A stretch of 34,847 nt of DNA from a virus, in the IMG/VR virus record IMGVR_UViG_3300033571_018600, positions 1 to 34,847 of that record; one strand, written 5' to 3'. Positions within the stretch are counted from its first letter, which is position 1; the number at the start of each line of letters is the position of its first letter. The notes under the pieces were generated by a model. The model was not told the DNA's origin. It made no database searches and saw nothing but the letters and a program-made list of their open reading frames with translations. Shown one piece after another: positions 5,792-27,541 of the stretch. The position numbers were made by a program, and so were the translations under genes.

Positions 5792-6071
5792 TGTTAGATC
5801 ATTTGGTAATAATGACGAGAAAGACCATAGCTACTACCATAGAGAAGGAAATAAACTACACGTCACCACCATTGAGTATAAAGACGACTACCCCAAAGAA
5901 TTAACACCAGCGGTTAGAATCCCACCAGGTTATAAGCAGTTAAATCTAACTCGGCTATCAACATTGGTGACTGTGGAAACTATCCCACAGAGTGAGATTT
6001 TTGGTGTAGCAATCAACGAGTGTCATAAAGTTAAAACGGTGACGGTATGGACGGTAAATCAATTCAGTTAA
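5781..6071 (+). CDS. hypothetical protein, 96 aa
   Basis: The start at 5781 overlaps the preceding stop by 11 bases, with GGAGAAAAG just upstream. The product is hydrophilic at the N terminus (several His and Tyr) and strand-rich later (LSTLVTVETIP). It is not recognised. Confidence 0.6.
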   Translation: MRNDVRSFGNNDEKDHSYYHREGNKLHVTTIEYKDDYPKELTPAVRIPPGYKQLNLTRLSTLVTVETIPQSEIFGVAINECHKVKTVTVWTVNQFS

Positions 6072-8020: not shown

Positions 8021-8096
8021 TGAGGAGTAGTTGAGTTGGTACAACACCCGACTGTTACTTGGGATATCGTAGGTTCGAGCCCTACCTCCTCAGCCA
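8021..8096 (+). tRNA. tRNA-Asn (anticodon GTT)
   Basis: The full cloverleaf folds by hand. The acceptor stem is TGAGGAG/CTCCTCA, the D stem GTTG/CAAC, the anticodon stem CCCGA/TTGGG with loop CTGTTAC (anticodon 8054-8056), and the T stem GTAGG/CCTAC with TTCGAGC. The discriminator is G, and CCA is encoded. It reads AAC/AAU, common in this AT-rich phage. Confidence 0.93.
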
Positions 8097-8142: not shown

Positions 8143-8218
8143 CGGCCAGAGGTGTATCGGTTTGCATGAGGGTCTTATAAGCCTTGGGTAGTGGGTTCAA
8201 TTCCCACCTGGCCGACCA
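8143..8218 (+). tRNA. tRNA-Ile (anticodon TAT)
   Basis: The acceptor is CGGCCAG/CTGGCCG with discriminator A and encoded CCA. The D stem GTGT/GCAT has two G-U pairs, the anticodon stem AGGGT/GCCTT has G-U pairs, the loop is CTTATAA with anticodon TAT (8176-8178), and the T stem is GTGGG/CCCAC. Anticodon UAU reads AUA directly, a codon that the many ATA triplets of this phage use and that is often rare in bacterial hosts. The weak stems make it slightly less certain than the first tRNA. Confidence 0.88.
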
Positions 8219-17458: not shown

Positions 17459-17746
17459 ATGAAAAAGATTATAAACTATATGAAGAAGATTATAAACGTT
17501 CAAGAAGTTGAAGGTGATGGGTTGATTGGATTACTCGGTGAACGTGTTGAATTGTTTTGTATGAATTATATTTACACGGGCACACTAACTGGTGTAAATA
17601 CACATGACGTTCTTCTTAAAGACGCCGCTATTGTTTATGAGACAGGACCATTTGATGTTCCTAGATATGCGGATGCACAAAAAGTTGGCAATCTCTATGT
17701 AAGATCCAATTCTATCGAGTCGTATAGAAAGACAGATAAGCGATGA
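17459..17746 (+). CDS. Sm/Hfq-like small beta-barrel protein candidate, 95 aa
   Basis: After a short helix, residues about 22-90 follow an Sm-like strand order: LIGLLGERVELFC, YIYTGTLTGVN, DVLLKDAAIVY and YVRSNSIESY. In Sm folds these correspond to LGxxV, G-x-L, V-x-L-x-x-A and the closing I-x-x-I strand. Phage relatives with the YTGxLxGVN phrase are common but uncharacterised. The first 42 bases contain an imperfect 21-base repeat (MKKIINY, then MKKIINV), giving two in-frame starts; GAGGAAG favours the first. It stands just before a Ser-repeat gene and a structured RNA. Confidence 0.65.
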   Translation: MKKIINYMKKIINVQEVEGDGLIGLLGERVELFCMNYIYTGTLTGVNTHDVLLKDAAIVYETGPFDVPRYADAQKVGNLYVRSNSIESYRKTDKR

Positions 17747-17985
17747 ATATTCGTGGTTTAAGACAAAAATGGTCTAGGTCTAGATCTAGATCTGGGTCTT
17801 TGTCTGGATCTGGCTCTGGGTCTAGATCTAGGTCTGGGTCTGGCTCTGGGTCTAGATCTAGGTCTGGGTCTTTGTCTGGGTCTTGGTCTTGGTCTGTGTC
17901 TGGCCTCAGATCTAGATCTTGGTATGGGTCTTTGTCTGGTCCCACATCTAGGTCTTGGTCGGGGTCTGGGTCTTTGTTTAAATAA
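17743..17985 (+). CDS. Ser/Gly/Arg hexanucleotide-repeat protein, 80 aa
   Basis: The ATG overlaps the previous stop (ATGA). After MNIRGLRQKW the protein is a run of S-R, S-G and S-W units from repeated TCT-NNN hexamers (about 17772-17974). The S position is always TCT while the second codon varies (GGG, AGA, AGG, TTG). It resembles arginine/serine low-complexity domains and is probably disordered. The reverse strand is open across the same stretch because of the repeat, but the start, spacing and overlap favour this frame. Confidence 0.5.
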   Translation: MNIRGLRQKWSRSRSRSGSLSGSGSGSRSRSGSGSGSRSRSGSLSGSWSWSVSGLRSRSWYGSLSGPTSRSWSGSGSLFK

Positions 17986-18673: not shown

Positions 18674-18886
18674 ATGTTTTGGACAACAAGGTCTGGGGAC
18701 GTAGTACAAATATCAGAAATGTCAACACAACATATTGAAAACTGTATTCGACATTTAGAATTAAATCCAATTTTTGCTGGTAGTTATTCAATAGATTCAT
18801 CTGAAATTGATTGTGATATTGATTATGAACTAACTGATTCTTGTATGAAAGCTTTTAAAAAAGAACTGAGTAAAAGAAAAAAATGA
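18674..18886 (+). CDS. conserved small phage protein (MFWTTRSG type), 70 aa
   Basis: The start MFWTTRSGDVVQISEMSTQHIENCI matches a recurring phage phrase (MxWxTrdGxxixixxMxxxHxxN), of unknown role. GGAGGGG precedes ATG 18674. The ending is basic. It overlaps the next ATG by four bases. Confidence 0.65.
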   Translation: MFWTTRSGDVVQISEMSTQHIENCIRHLELNPIFAGSYSIDSSEIDCDIDYELTDSCMKAFKKELSKRKK

Positions 18887-18968
18887 GTTACGTTGAGCAT
18901 TGTAAGAAACATGGTCAGTATCACGGAGAAATTTGTGCAGAGTGTTTTGAGGATCTCAAAGTAGAGAA
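18883..18968 (+). repeat. 86-bp dispersed repeat, copy 1 (second copy at 19445-19530)
   Basis: These 86 bases and 19445-19530 differ only at 18938 (C) versus 19500 (G). Identity starts at the ATG of both genes and ends abruptly at a GTAGAGAA. Recent duplication or gene conversion of a gene 5' end is the simplest reading. Confidence 0.9.
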
Positions 18969-19143
18969 TTCTCGACTAAGAAAAGCACTAGAGTATATAA
19001 CAAATTCCGAATTATGCAGTAAGTGTGAATATCAAATGAAGCTTATTGATTGTATGCATGGAAGATCTGCGTATGAAATCGCCCGTTCCGCACTGCTCAT
19101 GGATTCTGTAATGGGAGTACAATTAGATGCTAAAGAATATTGA
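18883..19143 (+). CDS. zinc/coiled-coil protein, 86 aa (paralog 2)
   Basis: The opening CKKHGQYHGEICAECFEDLK carries His and Cys ligands (C7, H10, H14, C18, C21) for a zinc knuckle, followed by a helix with ENSRLRKALEYI and a later CSKC. The first 86 bases are nearly identical (one mismatch) to the start of the gene at 19445. The YEIARSALL ending matches EIARAAL of 18375. Confidence 0.7.
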   Translation: MSYVEHCKKHGQYHGEICAECFEDLKVENSRLRKALEYITNSELCSKCEYQMKLIDCMHGRSAYEIARSALLMDSVMGVQLDAKEY

Positions 19144-19444: not shown

Positions 19445-19530
19445 ATGAGTTACGTTGAGCATTGTAAGAAACATGGTCAGTATCACGGAGAAATTTGTGG
19501 AGAGTGTTTTGAGGATCTCAAAGTAGAGAA
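19445..19530 (+). repeat. 86-bp dispersed repeat, copy 2
   Basis: Second copy of the 18883-18968 repeat, 562 bases downstream, with one substitution in 86 bases. The sequence upstream of the two ATGs is unrelated. Confidence 0.9.
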
Positions 19531-19861
19531 CGCCCGAATGAAGCAAGCATTAGTTCTAATAGCAGATGATCACTGCACAAAAGAGTGTGTAGCTTTGGAA
19601 AAGCTGTGTGATCCATGTATAGCAAAAGAAGTATTAGGGGGCCAAATGAATAACAAAATGGAATTTAATAGTTACCGAGAACAAGAACTAGAAAGTCATA
19701 TTAGAATTCAAGAGAATATAATTTCCAGATTAAAAACTGAGAACAACAGTTTAAAAATCGTATTAAAAAATCTTAAAAATTCATTGACCGAGATCGGAAT
19801 CCAAACCGACGGCTCGTTAGATCTTATTGATCATCTTGACTTAGACTCAAATCAAAAGTAA
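19445..19861 (+). CDS. zinc/coiled-coil protein, 138 aa (paralog 3)
   Basis: It has the same zinc-knuckle start as the gene at 18883, then ALVLIADDHCTKEC and CDPC, then a second coiled coil (about 70-115) lacking in the paralogs. ACTGGAGAAC precedes ATG 19445. The C-terminal half is new, so it looks like a duplicated start fused to a longer helical tail. Confidence 0.65.
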   Translation: MSYVEHCKKHGQYHGEICGECFEDLKVENARMKQALVLIADDHCTKECVALEKLCDPCIAKEVLGGQMNNKMEFNSYREQELESHIRIQENIISRLKTENNSLKIVLKNLKNSLTEIGIQTDGSLDLIDHLDLDSNQK

Positions 19862-22617: not shown

Positions 22618-24564
22618 ATGTTGCATTTTGTACGATTGACAAAGGGTGTTGCGGATAAGGGCAAACTCATCCCATCCAATGAAATTTTCAATAACATCGA
22701 AGATGATGGTGATTACTACGCATCTGCTTACTACTACACAGATAAGCATGTCACTGAATTCTCAAAGTCTGGATCAGTGCGCGGCATTAAAGATGTCACC
22801 ACCAATAAAATTTGGTTTGATTTCGACCAAGCTGAAGATCCAGCATTCCCTCAGCTAGAGGCACAGGAGCTTGTACGTCGTCTAGAGAAGTATGGGATTC
22901 ATAAAAGCAACATTGAAATCTATTTCTCTGGAAATAAAGGGTTCCATTTATTTGTGACTCTGAACAAGTACATCACCCCAGATCAAGTCTTCAGTCTTTG
23001 TGTCACTAAATTCGGACAAGGACTTAAGTCACTTGATACTGCTGTCTATGATCCCTCACGAATCATCCGAGTTCCAGGGACAAGACACCCCAAAAGTGGT
23101 TTGTATAAAGTACCATTGACTTATAACCAATTGTACAATAGTTCTATTCATGAAATTAAAAAAATCGCTTCTTCGCTTGATAATATCAAAGATGAATTTG
23201 AGTGGCAGATGGCTAGTCCTAATGAGGATTTTTATAACATCCCTCAGAAGGAAAAAACAAAAACCATTCAGACGGTTAACCTAGATTTTACACAAAAACC
23301 AGCACAATGGAAAAATTGTAAATGGTCTTTGTTGCAGGGTAATTTCAAGGAAGGGGAACGCCACAACGCGTTAATGGTGATCGCTGCGACTTGTAGGGGG
23401 CTTGGTTACGACAAAGAAACCACCTACTACATGTGCAAATCCGCGCTTAAAAAGCAAGCCAACGCAAGCGGACAAGACGAGTTCCCAAAAGAGGAACTCT
23501 ATACAAACATCATCGAACAATCCGTTTTTACTGATAACTGGGAAGGCGGCCAATACAGCTGCCAGAAACCAAGCTGGCTACAAAAGTACTGTAGTGGGCT
23601 GGGTGAAAATAAATGTAAGCACGAAGCCGAAGAACCACCAGTAATCAAAGTGGAAGAGATGGGTGGACTGTTTAGTAACTACGCCCAAAACTTCGAGCAG
23701 AACATCATTAAAACTGGCATCACTAAACTAGACGACAAAGTAATGATCTGCGCATCCACACTCAATGGGTTACTGGGCCAACCTGGAGCTGGTAAAACTT
23801 CCATGTCACTCCAGTACCTATTAAACACCTCGCTCGAGGGTATTCATTCCACGTTCTTTAGCTTAGACATGGGTATGCCCATCGTTTATGCAAAAATGGT
23901 ACAGAAACTAACGGGTATGGACTTCAAAGAAGTTCTGTCTGTTTTCAAGGAAGACCCAAAGAAGGCAGCCGAATTAAGCACTCAATTGAAAGACCTGTAC
24001 AAAAATGTTGGATTTAACTTCAGATCGGGCCTTACTGTACCCGATTTGAAAACGACAATTCAACAGCAACAACAGGATCGTGGGGAGAAGGTTAAACTAG
24101 TTGTTATTGATTATCTCGAGTGTTTGGCTGGCCCTTATTCCGATCAAACGGCTAATACGGGGTTCATTGCTAATCAACTAAAGGACTTAGCCAACGACAT
24201 GTCTGTTGCAATTTTGCTTCTTCTACAGACTCAGAAACATTCAACACCGGATGTCTCAGATCCCCTTCTATCTTTAAAAGGAGTGAAAGGATCTTCATTG
24301 ATTGAACAATCTTGCTCCACAATCCTAACTCTTTGGCGGGAAGGCTATAATCCTAAGACAGTACTTGACGACAAGTATATCTCATTTGCTATTGTAAAGA
24401 ACAGATTCGGATCTTTGTGGTCTGGTGACTTCAGTTGGAATGGTGTCAGAGGTGACATTCGGGAGTTAACGGAAGAAGAAGAAACCGAATTGTCGGAGTT
24501 CAAAGAGAGAAAACTCCAAGCTAAGATGGAATCATTAGAAAAACAAAACACTGGGTGGGAATGA
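22618..24564 (+). CDS. AEP-type primase fused to a RecA/DnaB-type helicase
   Basis: The N-terminal half is an archaeo-eukaryotic primase-like domain: IWFDFD with D68 and D70 as metal ligands, IEIYFSGNKGFHL with H110, and RVPGTRHPKSG at 151-161. A Cys cluster (C315, C325, C333 and nearby H335) may bind zinc or Fe-S. The C-terminal half is a hexameric-helicase-like RecA fold with Walker A GQPGAGKT (387-394), Walker B LVVIDY (D498) and a LLLLQTQKH sensor (Q537, Q539). One 648-residue chain thus could prime and unwind. T7-type fusions use a TOPRIM primase instead. Confidence 0.85.
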   Translation: MLHFVRLTKGVADKGKLIPSNEIFNNIEDDGDYYASAYYYTDKHVTEFSKSGSVRGIKDVTTNKIWFDFDQAEDPAFPQLEAQELVRRLEKYGIHKSNIEIYFSGNKGFHLFVTLNKYITPDQVFSLCVTKFGQGLKSLDTAVYDPSRIIRVPGTRHPKSGLYKVPLTYNQLYNSSIHEIKKIASSLDNIKDEFEWQMASPNEDFYNIPQKEKTKTIQTVNLDFTQKPAQWKNCKWSLLQGNFKEGERHNALMVIAATCRGLGYDKETTYYMCKSALKKQANASGQDEFPKEELYTNIIEQSVFTDNWEGGQYSCQKPSWLQKYCSGLGENKCKHEAEEPPVIKVEEMGGLFSNYAQNFEQNIIKTGITKLDDKVMICASTLNGLLGQPGAGKTSMSLQYLLNTSLEGIHSTFFSLDMGMPIVYAKMVQKLTGMDFKEVLSVFKEDPKKAAELSTQLKDLYKNVGFNFRSGLTVPDLKTTIQQQQQDRGEKVKLVVIDYLECLAGPYSDQTANTGFIANQLKDLANDMSVAILLLLQTQKHSTPDVSDPLLSLKGVKGSSLIEQSCSTILTLWREGYNPKTVLDDKYISFAIVKNRFGSLWSGDFSWNGVRGDIRELTEEEETELSEFKERKLQAKMESLEKQNTGWE

Positions 24565-25170: not shown

Positions 25171-25429
25171 CAGCTCTTCTCGTAACTCACATCAAGAAGG
25201 TGATATTGTAATTATTGCAGAGAGGATTAAAGATCGTGTCAGAAAAAGCGACAGTGAAGTAGTTATTGGAACAGTCGTTCATGTTGAAAAAAATCAAGTA
25301 TGGGTTTTGCTAACCAACCAAAATATCTGGGTTGGTGATTCTTGGAATGTTTATCCCTATGAGGAATCAAGCAATGAGCAACGATCTGATTTACGGGAAG
25401 AATCAAACTCAGAAGATAGTATCGATTGA
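25157..25429 (+). CDS. hypothetical protein, 90 aa
   Basis: It overlaps the previous gene by 14 bases. A basic polar start, a strand core (DIVIIAERI, VVIGTVVHVEKNQVWVLL) and an acidic tail (SEDSID) suggest a small beta-barrel. The acidic tail overlaps the polymerase start in another frame. GGGGAATCG precedes the ATG. Confidence 0.55.
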   Translation: MKKTDSSSRNSHQEGDIVIIAERIKDRVRKSDSEVVIGTVVHVEKNQVWVLLTNQNIWVGDSWNVYPYEESSNEQRSDLREESNSEDSID

Positions 25430-26870
25430 GCCAAATGATGAACAATGCACAATCTTCACGGAAGAAAATGGCTCTGTATCACAATTCGTAGTCCCCAACA
25501 GATACTGGGTATTAGCTGCGGATAATTTAGATGGAAGTTTCACTAGATTAAATGGTTCGCTATACTATAAGTATGGCAAACAATTTAAATCTAGGACTGA
25601 TTATATTTCATTCAAGAAAGAAAATACAAAGAAGGACCTGTATTCTGTCCATGATGCTAAGGAATCCCTTATGCTCAAGGATGGTTATACGTACTTCAAG
25701 GGCATGAATCCGAGTGAAGTTTCAATCTTGTCCTTTGATATTGAAACCACAGGACTAAACCCTGAAGCCAGAGATGCTTCTGTATTACTCATATCTAATA
25801 CTCTCCGTATAAATGGAAAAACAACAAGGAAGCTATTCGCTTACTCCGACTATACCAGCAGCTTTGACATGATCTTAGATTGGTGTAATTGGGTTAGAGA
25901 GATGAACCCATCCATCATCTGTGGTCATAACATTTATTCTTTCGATTTGGTGTACTTATCTAAATATGCACAGATCAATGGTGGCAATTTAAATTTGGGT
26001 AGAGATGGATCTGAAATTAGATTCGATTCATATGAAGCCAAATTCAGAGTAGATGGAACCAGAGATCTACACTACAACAAAGTCAGATGCTATGGCAGGG
26101 AACTGGTGGACACCATGTTCCTTGCATATAAATATGACATTGGTAGAAAGTACGAAAGCTATGGTCTTAAGAAGATCATTGCACAAGAAGGTCTAGAAGC
26201 CAAAGACCGCATTTTTTATGACGCAGCACAGATTCGGTTTAAGTATAAAGATCTAAAGGAATGGGAACTCATCAAGCAATACTGTCTACACGACGCAGAT
26301 GACGCATTAAAACTGTACGACTTGATGGCCCCGCCTTTCTTTTACATGACCCAATCCGTACCAAAGAGCTTTCAGTCTATGATTGAGTCAGCCTCGGGGA
26401 GCCAGATTAATTCTGTGATGGTGAGAGGTTACCTACAGGAGAAGCACAGCATACCAAAGGCATCACCCACAGAGTCGTTTGAGGGTGGAATTAGCTTTGG
26501 GATACCAGGTATCTACCGTAATTGCTGGAAAGTGGATATCAAAAGTGCTTATCCTTCATCTGTTCTAATCTACCGCTTATATGACAAGTACAAAGACCCC
26601 AATGCTAATATGCTAAAGTTGTGTGAACACTTCACCTACAAAAGATTCGAGTATAAAAAACTATACAAAGAGACAGGTGACAACTACTATCAGTCAATGG
26701 ATGGTGCTGCTAAAATCTTCATCAATTCCATTTTCGGGTTCTGTGGGGCACCCGGTTTAAATTTCAACAGTCCAAAAGTAGCAGCTAAAATCACGGAGTC
26801 CACGAGAGACTTTTTGGAAAAGGCAATGGTTTGGGCAACTGGGGATGGAAAGGATAAGTGGTTGACATGA
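25374..26870 (+). CDS. family B DNA polymerase, N-terminal piece (exonuclease, motifs A and B)
   Basis: 498 residues. The 3'-5' exonuclease motifs are all present: FDIETTG (D122, E124), GHNIYSFD (N186, D191) and YCLHDADD (D307). Polymerase motif A is DIKSAYPSS (D388) and motif B KIFINSIFGF (K447, N451). Motif C is missing: it is in the next gene. The ATG at 25374 is chosen for GAGGAATC just upstream and length match. The protein ends at WLT, in the palm, where intact polymerases continue. Either a natural two-chain enzyme or one gene broken by a frame change. Confidence 0.9.
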   Translation: MSNDLIYGKNQTQKIVSIEPNDEQCTIFTEENGSVSQFVVPNRYWVLAADNLDGSFTRLNGSLYYKYGKQFKSRTDYISFKKENTKKDLYSVHDAKESLMLKDGYTYFKGMNPSEVSILSFDIETTGLNPEARDASVLLISNTLRINGKTTRKLFAYSDYTSSFDMILDWCNWVREMNPSIICGHNIYSFDLVYLSKYAQINGGNLNLGRDGSEIRFDSYEAKFRVDGTRDLHYNKVRCYGRELVDTMFLAYKYDIGRKYESYGLKKIIAQEGLEAKDRIFYDAAQIRFKYKDLKEWELIKQYCLHDADDALKLYDLMAPPFFYMTQSVPKSFQSMIESASGSQINSVMVRGYLQEKHSIPKASPTESFEGGISFGIPGIYRNCWKVDIKSAYPSSVLIYRLYDKYKDPNANMLKLCEHFTYKRFEYKKLYKETGDNYYQSMDGAAKIFINSIFGFCGAPGLNFNSPKVAAKITESTRDFLEKAMVWATGDGKDKWLT

Positions 26871-27541
26871 ATAAAGGATGGGCAATCTCAAACGGTGACA
26901 CGGACTCGCTCACATTTTATAAGCCAGACCAATCCTTCTTCTCCAAAGAAGAAAGGGATGAGTTTTTAAAAGAACTAAACTCCCTTTACCCAGAAGGGCT
27001 AACCTGGGAAGACGATGGTTATTACCCATGCATGATCGTTTTCAAAGCGAAGAATTATGTTCTTTATGATGGCAATAAGATTAAAACAAAAGGTTCAGCA
27101 ATCAAAGCCACAACTAAAGAACCAGCACTAAGGGAGTTTATTAATAGGATTATCGAATCCATTATAAACGAAAAAAGAAATTACGCCGAGATTTACTTGG
27201 AATATGTAAGAGAAGCAATGAATATTAAGGATATTAAAAGATGGGTCACTAGAAAAACTATTTCTGAAAAAACACTGAACCCACAAAGAGCAAACGAACA
27301 AAAGGTATTTGACATTATCTCTAACACCGATTATAGTGAAGGGGATAGAATTCATTGTTATTTCAAAACCGATGGATCACTTTGTCTAGTTGAGAACTTT
27401 GACGGCGATTACGACAAAGATAAAATGCTCGAGAAACTGTTTAAAACATCTGAGATTTTCAAAACTGTTTTACCGGAAAAAACTTTTATTAACTTCAAAC
27501 TTAAAAAGAATAAAAATCTATTAGAGGATGTAATAACATGA
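26867..27541 (+). CDS. family B DNA polymerase, C-terminal piece (motif C, thumb)
   Basis: ATG 26867 (or GTG 26858 with AAAGGA closer) starts just before the catalytic motif C, SNGDTDSL (D11, D13). A thumb-like part follows, with KTKGSAIKATTKEPALREF near 66-84. It is 224 residues. It lies in the -1 frame relative to the first piece, with a four-base overlap from ATG 26867. Combined, the pieces cover about 720 residues, like many phage family B polymerases. No slippery heptamer is seen in the 13 bases where both frames are open, so two subunits are likelier than frameshifting. Confidence 0.88.
   Translation: MNKGWAISNGDTDSLTFYKPDQSFFSKEERDEFLKELNSLYPEGLTWEDDGYYPCMIVFKAKNYVLYDGNKIKTKGSAIKATTKEPALREFINRIIESIINEKRNYAEIYLEYVREAMNIKDIKRWVTRKTISEKTLNPQRANEQKVFDIISNTDYSEGDRIHCYFKTDGSLCLVENFDGDYDKDKMLEKLFKTSEIFKTVLPEKTFINFKLKKNKNLLEDVIT

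What the first reader, a model, noticed from the sequence alone, without database searches (positions are those of the whole stretch)
25374..27541. Family B DNA polymerase split between motifs B and C by a tiny overlap
Exonuclease motifs and polymerase motifs A and B are in the first gene; catalytic motif C (GDTDS) and thumb are in the second, which is in the -1 frame and overlaps by only 4-13 bases. Split T4-type polymerases are known in some phages, but there the pieces are typically separated by intergenic DNA with homing genes. Here the halves are coupled directly within the palm, so two chains must complement, or a frameshift joins them.
Basis: partly seen in the sequence, partly recalled or inferred. 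Interest (0 to 1): 0.75.

Follow-up and report, generated by a model that had tools for sequence, protein, structure and literature searches.

The report
Phage DNA polymerase made in two pieces
This virus appears to build its only recognisable DNA-copying enzyme from two separate protein chains cut through the active centre, and about a third of its known relatives are cut at the same spot, often with a DNA-cutting mobile gene or another small gene sitting in the cut, so the break looks like an inherited scar of selfish DNA rather than a sequencing error.

Summary
A family B DNA polymerase lies in two ORFs, 25374-26870 and 26867-27541, overlapping by ATGA, in the -1 frame. The break falls between motifs B and C. 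It is not a single-base error: 29 extra bases lie between the last helix before the break and motif C. Among 51 distinct relatives (window included), 18 are split at this site, 4 carry an in-frame linker there and 29 are uninterrupted. Twelve of the split genes hold 126-1013 nt between the halves; five of these inserts encode GIY-YIG or HNH-type homing-endonuclease-like proteins. Six, including the window, have no insert. The window is a mosaic: its body groups with three intact relatives, while about 570 nt around the break groups with interrupted alleles only, as expected of a homing co-conversion tract. In an AlphaFold model of an intact relative the break lies in a three-residue loop; the N half modelled alone is disordered only near the motif A strand that should pack against the C half. 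Best reading: two chains made by translational coupling and assembled non-covalently. Kind known (T4-like gp43A/B, archaeal split PolB); the site, the frequency, the insert-free scars and the linker-fused alleles are a new variant.

The parts
25374..26870 (+). N half of family B DNA polymerase: N-terminal domain, 3'-5' exonuclease, palm with motif A, fingers, motif B, and the helix ending in WATG, plus an 11-residue tail absent from intact relatives
26867..27541 (+). C half of the polymerase: motif C strand (ISNGDTDS) and thumb; alternative GTG start at 26858
26867..26870 (+). ATGA stop/start overlap (-1 frame), arrangement for termination-reinitiation coupling
26832..26896 (+). Break interval: 65 nt from the W codon to the first Asp codon of motif C, against 36 nt in intact relatives (29 nt extra, holding the N tail, the SD-like GGAAAGGAT and the new start)
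26535..26561 (+). Motif A, DIKSAYPSS (catalytic Asp kept; SAYPS instead of SLYPS, shared with interrupted alleles)
26712..26738 (+). Motif B, KIFINSIFG
26897..26908 (+). Motif C catalytic DTDS in the C half
26468..27040 (+). Foreign tract around the break: nucleotide homology to the intact relative L002 stops at about 26468 and resumes at about 27040

Best explanation
The gene pair is a genuine split replicative polymerase. SHOWN: the gene is cut in the short loop between the helix after motif B and the beta strand carrying motif C; no structural element is missing; both halves remain conserved; the cut recurs at this site in about a third of related phages, some with homing-endonuclease-like genes between the halves; in the window the sequence around the cut groups with a different, interrupted lineage than the rest of the gene. 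INFERRED: the site is a homing or insertion hot spot; the window acquired the already cut allele by gene conversion (co-conversion) and now carries a short scar without the mobile gene. The scar supplies an SD-like sequence and an ATGA overlap, so a ribosome finishing the N half restarts on the C half. The two chains then assemble non-covalently, the C half adding the motif C strands to the palm sheet to complete the catalytic site.
For: Two ORFs with all motifs distributed as stated. Of 51 distinct loci, 18 are split at this site, 4 are linker-fused there and 29 are uninterrupted. Inserts: GIY-YIG in L015 and L096 (Pfam 6.6e-9 and 1.1e-7; PHROG homing endonuclease 3.5e-31 for L015; 47% identical to each other), HNH-type in L019 (PHROG 1e-9) and in L039/L097 (41% identical to each other, weak HNH hits). 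The exonuclease-domain tree puts the window with intact L002/L005/L007 (SH-aLRT 100); the palm tree puts it with interrupted L038/L013/L048/L043-45 (support 100/98). Diagnostic residues: 13 interrupted-type against 2 kin-type in the palm, 3 against 28 in the exonuclease part, Fisher p = 4.8e-7. L013 and L015 are 93-98% identical on both flanks but have an unalignable block centred on the break and different inserts. Structure: intact L002 modelled at pLDDT 91, helix 466-489, loop 490-492, strand 493-498 with motif C Asp498. Window N half alone models at mean pLDDT 91 with only residues 380-388, the motif A strand, as a run under 50. No second family B polymerase in 14 split records; PolA only in L029's record. 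pN 0.19-0.23 against pS 0.75-0.92 to intact relatives in both halves. The split of L026 is found in two metagenomes.
Against: No biochemical or proteomic evidence for this phage. Only 5 of 12 inserts look like homing endonucleases; the other 7 carry other or unrecognised small ORFs, so homing explains the site only in part. The AU test against keeping the window with its intact kin in the palm tree is borderline (p = 0.0545, delta lnL 40.5), and faster change after splitting could mimic part of the signal. pS is saturated, so selection since the split cannot be isolated. The window record is 34.8 kb and may be incomplete, so an intact copy elsewhere is not formally excluded. No identical junction was found in another viral contig.
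Confidence: 0.82

Rival explanations
1. Programmed -1 ribosomal frameshifting joins the halves into one chain of about 720 residues.
For: The two frames overlap directly and the C half lies in the -1 frame.
Against: The region open in both frames is 13 nt (GTGGTTGACATGA) with no slippery heptamer. RNA around it is less structured than shuffled sequence (z +2.5). The other overlap alleles need +1, share no signal, and 12 alleles have 126-1013 nt in between.
Confidence: 0.05
2. Sequencing or assembly error, or a recent frameshift mutation making a pseudogene.
For: The three nearest relatives are intact, and L032 shows a frame break elsewhere in the palm that could be such an error.
Against: 29 nt too many, not one base. 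Breaks at the same site in 17 other loci, one seen in two metagenome assemblies. The N tail GDGKDKW resembles GRGKDYW of the split allele L038. Both halves conserved.
Confidence: 0.06
3. The N half has become a stand-alone exonuclease or repair protein and the C half is a decaying remnant; replication uses another polymerase.
For: Motifs A and B are atypical (SAYPS, IFG).
Against: The C half keeps DTDS and thumb residues and is 71-74% identical to an intact homolog. No other PolB in 14 split records up to 104 kb; PolA in only one of the 17 records searched, L029's. The motif A variant is shared with L013, L048 and L038 (SAYPS) and resembles linker-fused L043-L045 (SCYPS).
Confidence: 0.06
4. 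The break arose by de novo local insertion in the window lineage, with accelerated palm evolution afterwards and no horizontal transfer of the tract (the two-chain reading still holds).
For: L003 and L012 are split but keep palms like their intact sisters (81% and 73%), so local splitting without a long tract does occur. AU p = 0.0545.
Against: 13 shared diagnostic residues with interrupted alleles in the palm. The drop is sharp on both sides of the break (95% to about 45%, back to about 80%). The same mosaic block is seen in L013 against L015.
Confidence: 0.2

Closest known systems
Split gp43 (43A/43B) of T4-like Aeromonas phages 44RR and 25
   Same: Phage replicative family B polymerase in two genes; in phage 25 a GIY-YIG endonuclease gene lies between the halves; the halves are reported to co-purify with polymerase activity (PMC2988022, citing Petrov 2010).
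   Different: Break between motifs A and B: in 44RR, 43A ends after DLTSLYPSI and 43B holds KILINSLYG and YIDTDS. Here it is between B and C. In 44RR there is a 49-nt spacer; here the genes overlap. Different branch of polymerases.
Split PolB of Methanothermobacter thermautotrophicus
   Same: Family B polymerase made of two polypeptides, thought to derive from erratic intein excision (PMC4104785, PMC7776575). From memory, not tested: the small subunit carries motif C, as here.
   Different: Cellular archaeal enzyme, intein-derived origin proposed; in these phages no inteins, and the inserts are free-standing ORFs.
Nanoarchaeum equitans split PolB / pol-c intein site
   Same: Break in the motif C region of PolB (PMC549080).
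   Different: Site is YGD|TDS inside motif C with split-intein halves and trans-splicing; here the break is several residues earlier, before the motif C strand, and the added tails are far too short for intein halves.
Aeh1 NrdA split by mobE and similar fragmented phage genes
   Same: Homing endonuclease insertion splits an essential gene, product reassembles (PMC2988022); polymerase genes split by endonucleases are also reported in Jug gut phages (PMC12363816).
   Different: Different gene; there the endonuclease is still present, whereas the window and five other alleles lack any insert.

Membership tests
Family B DNA polymerase | Exonuclease domain plus palm motifs A, B, C | tested here: met
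   A and B atypical at conserved positions, catalytic Asp and Lys kept
Family B DNA polymerase | PolB fold | tested here: met
   AlphaFold model of intact L002 matches KOD/9N polymerases, Foldseek probability 1.00, TM about 0.75-0.78; inferred for the window by homology
Split polymerase of two chains | Two conserved ORFs together covering one full polymerase, no intact copy | tested here: met
   (window record may be partial)
Split polymerase of two chains | Halves associate and are active together | not testable with these tools
   only structural inference
Homing-endonuclease-split gene | Endonuclease gene in the break | tested here: not met
   absent in the window itself; present at the same site in L015, L096, L019, L039, L097
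Homing-endonuclease-split gene | Co-conversion tract around the insertion site | tested here: met
   AU test borderline
T4-type split gp43 | Break between motifs A and B in the fingers | tested here: not met
   44RR break mapped; window break lies between B and C
Split or cis intein | Intein splicing blocks at the break | tested here: not met
   11-residue tail and 10 residues before motif C leave no room
Group I intron | Intron RNA at the break | tested here: not met
   No Rfam intron in the window or in the 12 loci with inserts; 29 nt is too short

The most novel reading that the evidence does not exclude
The motif C loop of this phage polymerase is a mobile fission site: the cut allele itself, with about 500 nt of flanking palm, spreads by gene conversion between otherwise different polymerases, picks up and loses endonuclease and unrelated small genes, persists as an insert-free coupled pair, and can be re-fused with a linker (L043-L045, L082). 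One enzyme group would thus run a fission and fusion cycle through its catalytic centre.
Probability: 0.5. Interest if true: 0.72.

Novelty: new variant of a known kind. Interest (0 to 1): 0.6.

Why it matters
Splitting an essential enzyme through its catalytic palm should be costly, yet about a third of this phage group does it at one loop. The group holds intact, insert-split, insert-free split and linker-fused alleles, so it offers a natural series for asking how selfish insertions turn one protein into two subunits and back. It also gives a split point already used in nature for engineering two-part polymerases, and a warning that gene callers and family profiles can miss the motif C half, which had no Pfam or PHROG hit.

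Tried and rejected
Nucleotide search of cultured phages: no match. First viral scan with the N half alone: no hit; the C half found relatives. Genome (prophage) scan: no relative. Exact junction in viral contigs: none. Group I intron at the break: none in Rfam. Intein: no room. Frameshift: no slippery site or structure. L032 was first counted as split; its frame break lies elsewhere in the palm and the site itself is intact, so it was counted as uninterrupted. dN/dS: synonymous sites saturated, so only overall constraint can be stated. The Petrov 2010 paper and the Dassa 2009 paper are not held, so 44RR was mapped directly from its record.

Full report
OBSERVATION. The window is a 34,847-base IMG/VR virus record. 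ORF 25374-26870 encodes 498 residues with the exonuclease motif FDIET, motif A (DIKSAYPSS) and motif B (KIFINSIFG). ORF 26867-27541 encodes 224 residues with motif C (NGDTDS) and a thumb-like region. The overlap is ATGA, or 13 nt if GTG 26858 is the start, and the second frame is -1. Pfam and PHROGs identify the N half as family B polymerase but give nothing usable for the C half.

RELATIVES. The nearest cultured phages with a similar N half are Salinibacter phages (29% identity, intact 801-aa gene), then Nostoc/Anabaena phages. IMG/VR scans with the halves and with alignments of them gave close and distant relatives. After removing duplicates, 51 loci (window included) hold both halves. The distance from the conserved Trp codon at the end of the helix to the first Asp codon of motif C is 36 nt in most intact genes, and also in the Salinibacter gene. 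At this site 29 genes are uninterrupted, 4 have an in-frame linker (L043, L044, L045 with 27 residues, L082 with 23), and 18 are split. Six split genes have overlapping halves (window 4 nt, L003 14, L012 11, L026 11, L029 14, L038 14). Twelve have 126-1013 nt between the halves. The extra length in the window is 29 nt, so a one-base error is excluded as the cause. The L026 junction is present in two separate metagenome assemblies.

INSERTS. L015 and L096 encode GIY-YIG proteins (Pfam 6.6e-9 and 1.1e-7) that are 47% identical to each other. L019 encodes an HNH-type protein (PHROG 1e-9, weak Pfam), and L039 and L097 encode related proteins (41% identical) with weak HNH matches. The other seven inserts (L013, L031, L040, L048, L052, L074, L100) carry other or unrecognised small ORFs. 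No group I intron was found. Most C halves restart within about a dozen residues before motif C, and the N halves gain tails of 6-26 residues where measured.

MOSAIC STRUCTURE. On the exonuclease-domain tree the window sits inside a fully supported group with intact L002, L005 and L007, and the six overlap splits need six separate changes. On the palm tree it sits with L038, L013, L048 and L043-L045, all interrupted alleles (100/98). Sliding identity to L005/L007 falls from 95% (residues 301-360) to 39-48% (381-440), is about 45% in the first 40 residues of the C part, and returns to over 80%. In DNA the gap in homology to L002 is about 26468-27040. Of residues diagnostic for one side or the other, the palm part has 13 of interrupted type and 2 of kin type, the exonuclease part 3 and 28 (Fisher p = 4.8e-7). 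The window's flank-minus-tract drop, 27 points, is the largest of all loci compared. The intact/interrupted label follows the palm tree (9 changes, 0 of 500 shuffles as low) better than the exonuclease tree (15 changes, 97 of 500). L013 and L015 show the same pattern in near-identical genomes: 93-98% DNA identity on both flanks, an unalignable block around the break, and different inserts. This is what homing with co-conversion would produce. Caveat: the AU test of the window against its kin in the palm is borderline (p = 0.0545). L003 and L012 do not show such a tract, so some splits are local.

MECHANISM. In the AlphaFold model of intact L002 (pLDDT 91) the helix ends at residue 489 and the motif C strand starts at 493, so the break lies in a three-residue loop. 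Foldseek confirms a PolB fold. The window N half modelled alone is confident throughout except around residues 371-390 (380-388 under pLDDT 50), the motif A strand, which in the intact model is ordered and would pack against the motif C strands. I infer that the C half completes the palm sheet. Frameshifting is unlikely: no slippery heptamer in the 13-nt region, RNA less structured than shuffles, and other alleles are in the other frame or far apart. An SD-like GGAAAGGAT precedes the ATGA start by 11 nt, which fits termination-reinitiation. The split records searched, up to 104 kb, have the two halves and no other family B polymerase; only L029's record has a PolA. Both halves are conserved against intact relatives (pN 0.19-0.23, pS 0.75-0.92 and saturated).

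COMPARISON. T4-like gp43A/B is the nearest phage precedent, and its halves co-purify and are active (PMC2988022). Its break is elsewhere: in 44RR motif A ends up in 43A while motifs B and C are in 43B. The Nanoarchaeum and pol-c intein site is YGD|TDS, inside motif C (PMC549080). The Methanothermobacter PolB is also two chains, of proposed intein origin (PMC4104785). I found no description of a phage PolB split at this loop in the library searched, which lacks most subscription papers.

VERDICT. Real, functional-looking split polymerase; a new variant of a known kind. What remains inferred: assembly and activity of the two chains, the gene-conversion history, and the loss of an insert in the window lineage.

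Noticed in passing
L043, L044, L045, L082 (around 5900-6020; L082 7462-7567): Uninterrupted polymerases with 23-27-residue linkers exactly at the split site; L043-L045 palms group with split alleles, suggesting re-fusion of a formerly split gene.
   Followed up: partly
L013 7166-8028 against L015 2199-3364: Two 93-98% identical phage loci differ by an unalignable block centred on the polymerase break, with different inserts: a natural homing-like replacement.
   Followed up: partly
L040 4981-5995: About 1 kb between the polymerase halves carries two small genes, one with DUF6939 (Pfam 7.1e-11), not a nuclease.
   Followed up: partly
window 17743-17985: Low-complexity ORF rich in Ser-Arg and Ser-Gly repeats, with an Asp-Pro-rich reading on the other strand.
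   Followed up: no
window 18883-19143 and 19445-19861: Neighbouring paralogous small ORFs sharing the start MSYVEHCKKHGQYHGEIC-ECFEDLKVEN.
   Followed up: no
window 8021-8093 and 8143-8215: Two tRNA genes (Rfam); L052 also has two tRNAs just after its polymerase C half.
   Followed up: no
L032 around 5830-5938: Polymerase frame broken within the palm, upstream of the split site; sequencing error or pseudogene.
   Followed up: no
window 22618-24564: Primase-helicase with a DnaB-like C-terminal domain (Pfam 6.9e-24) and a weak primase-small-subunit-like match in its N-terminal part.
   Followed up: no
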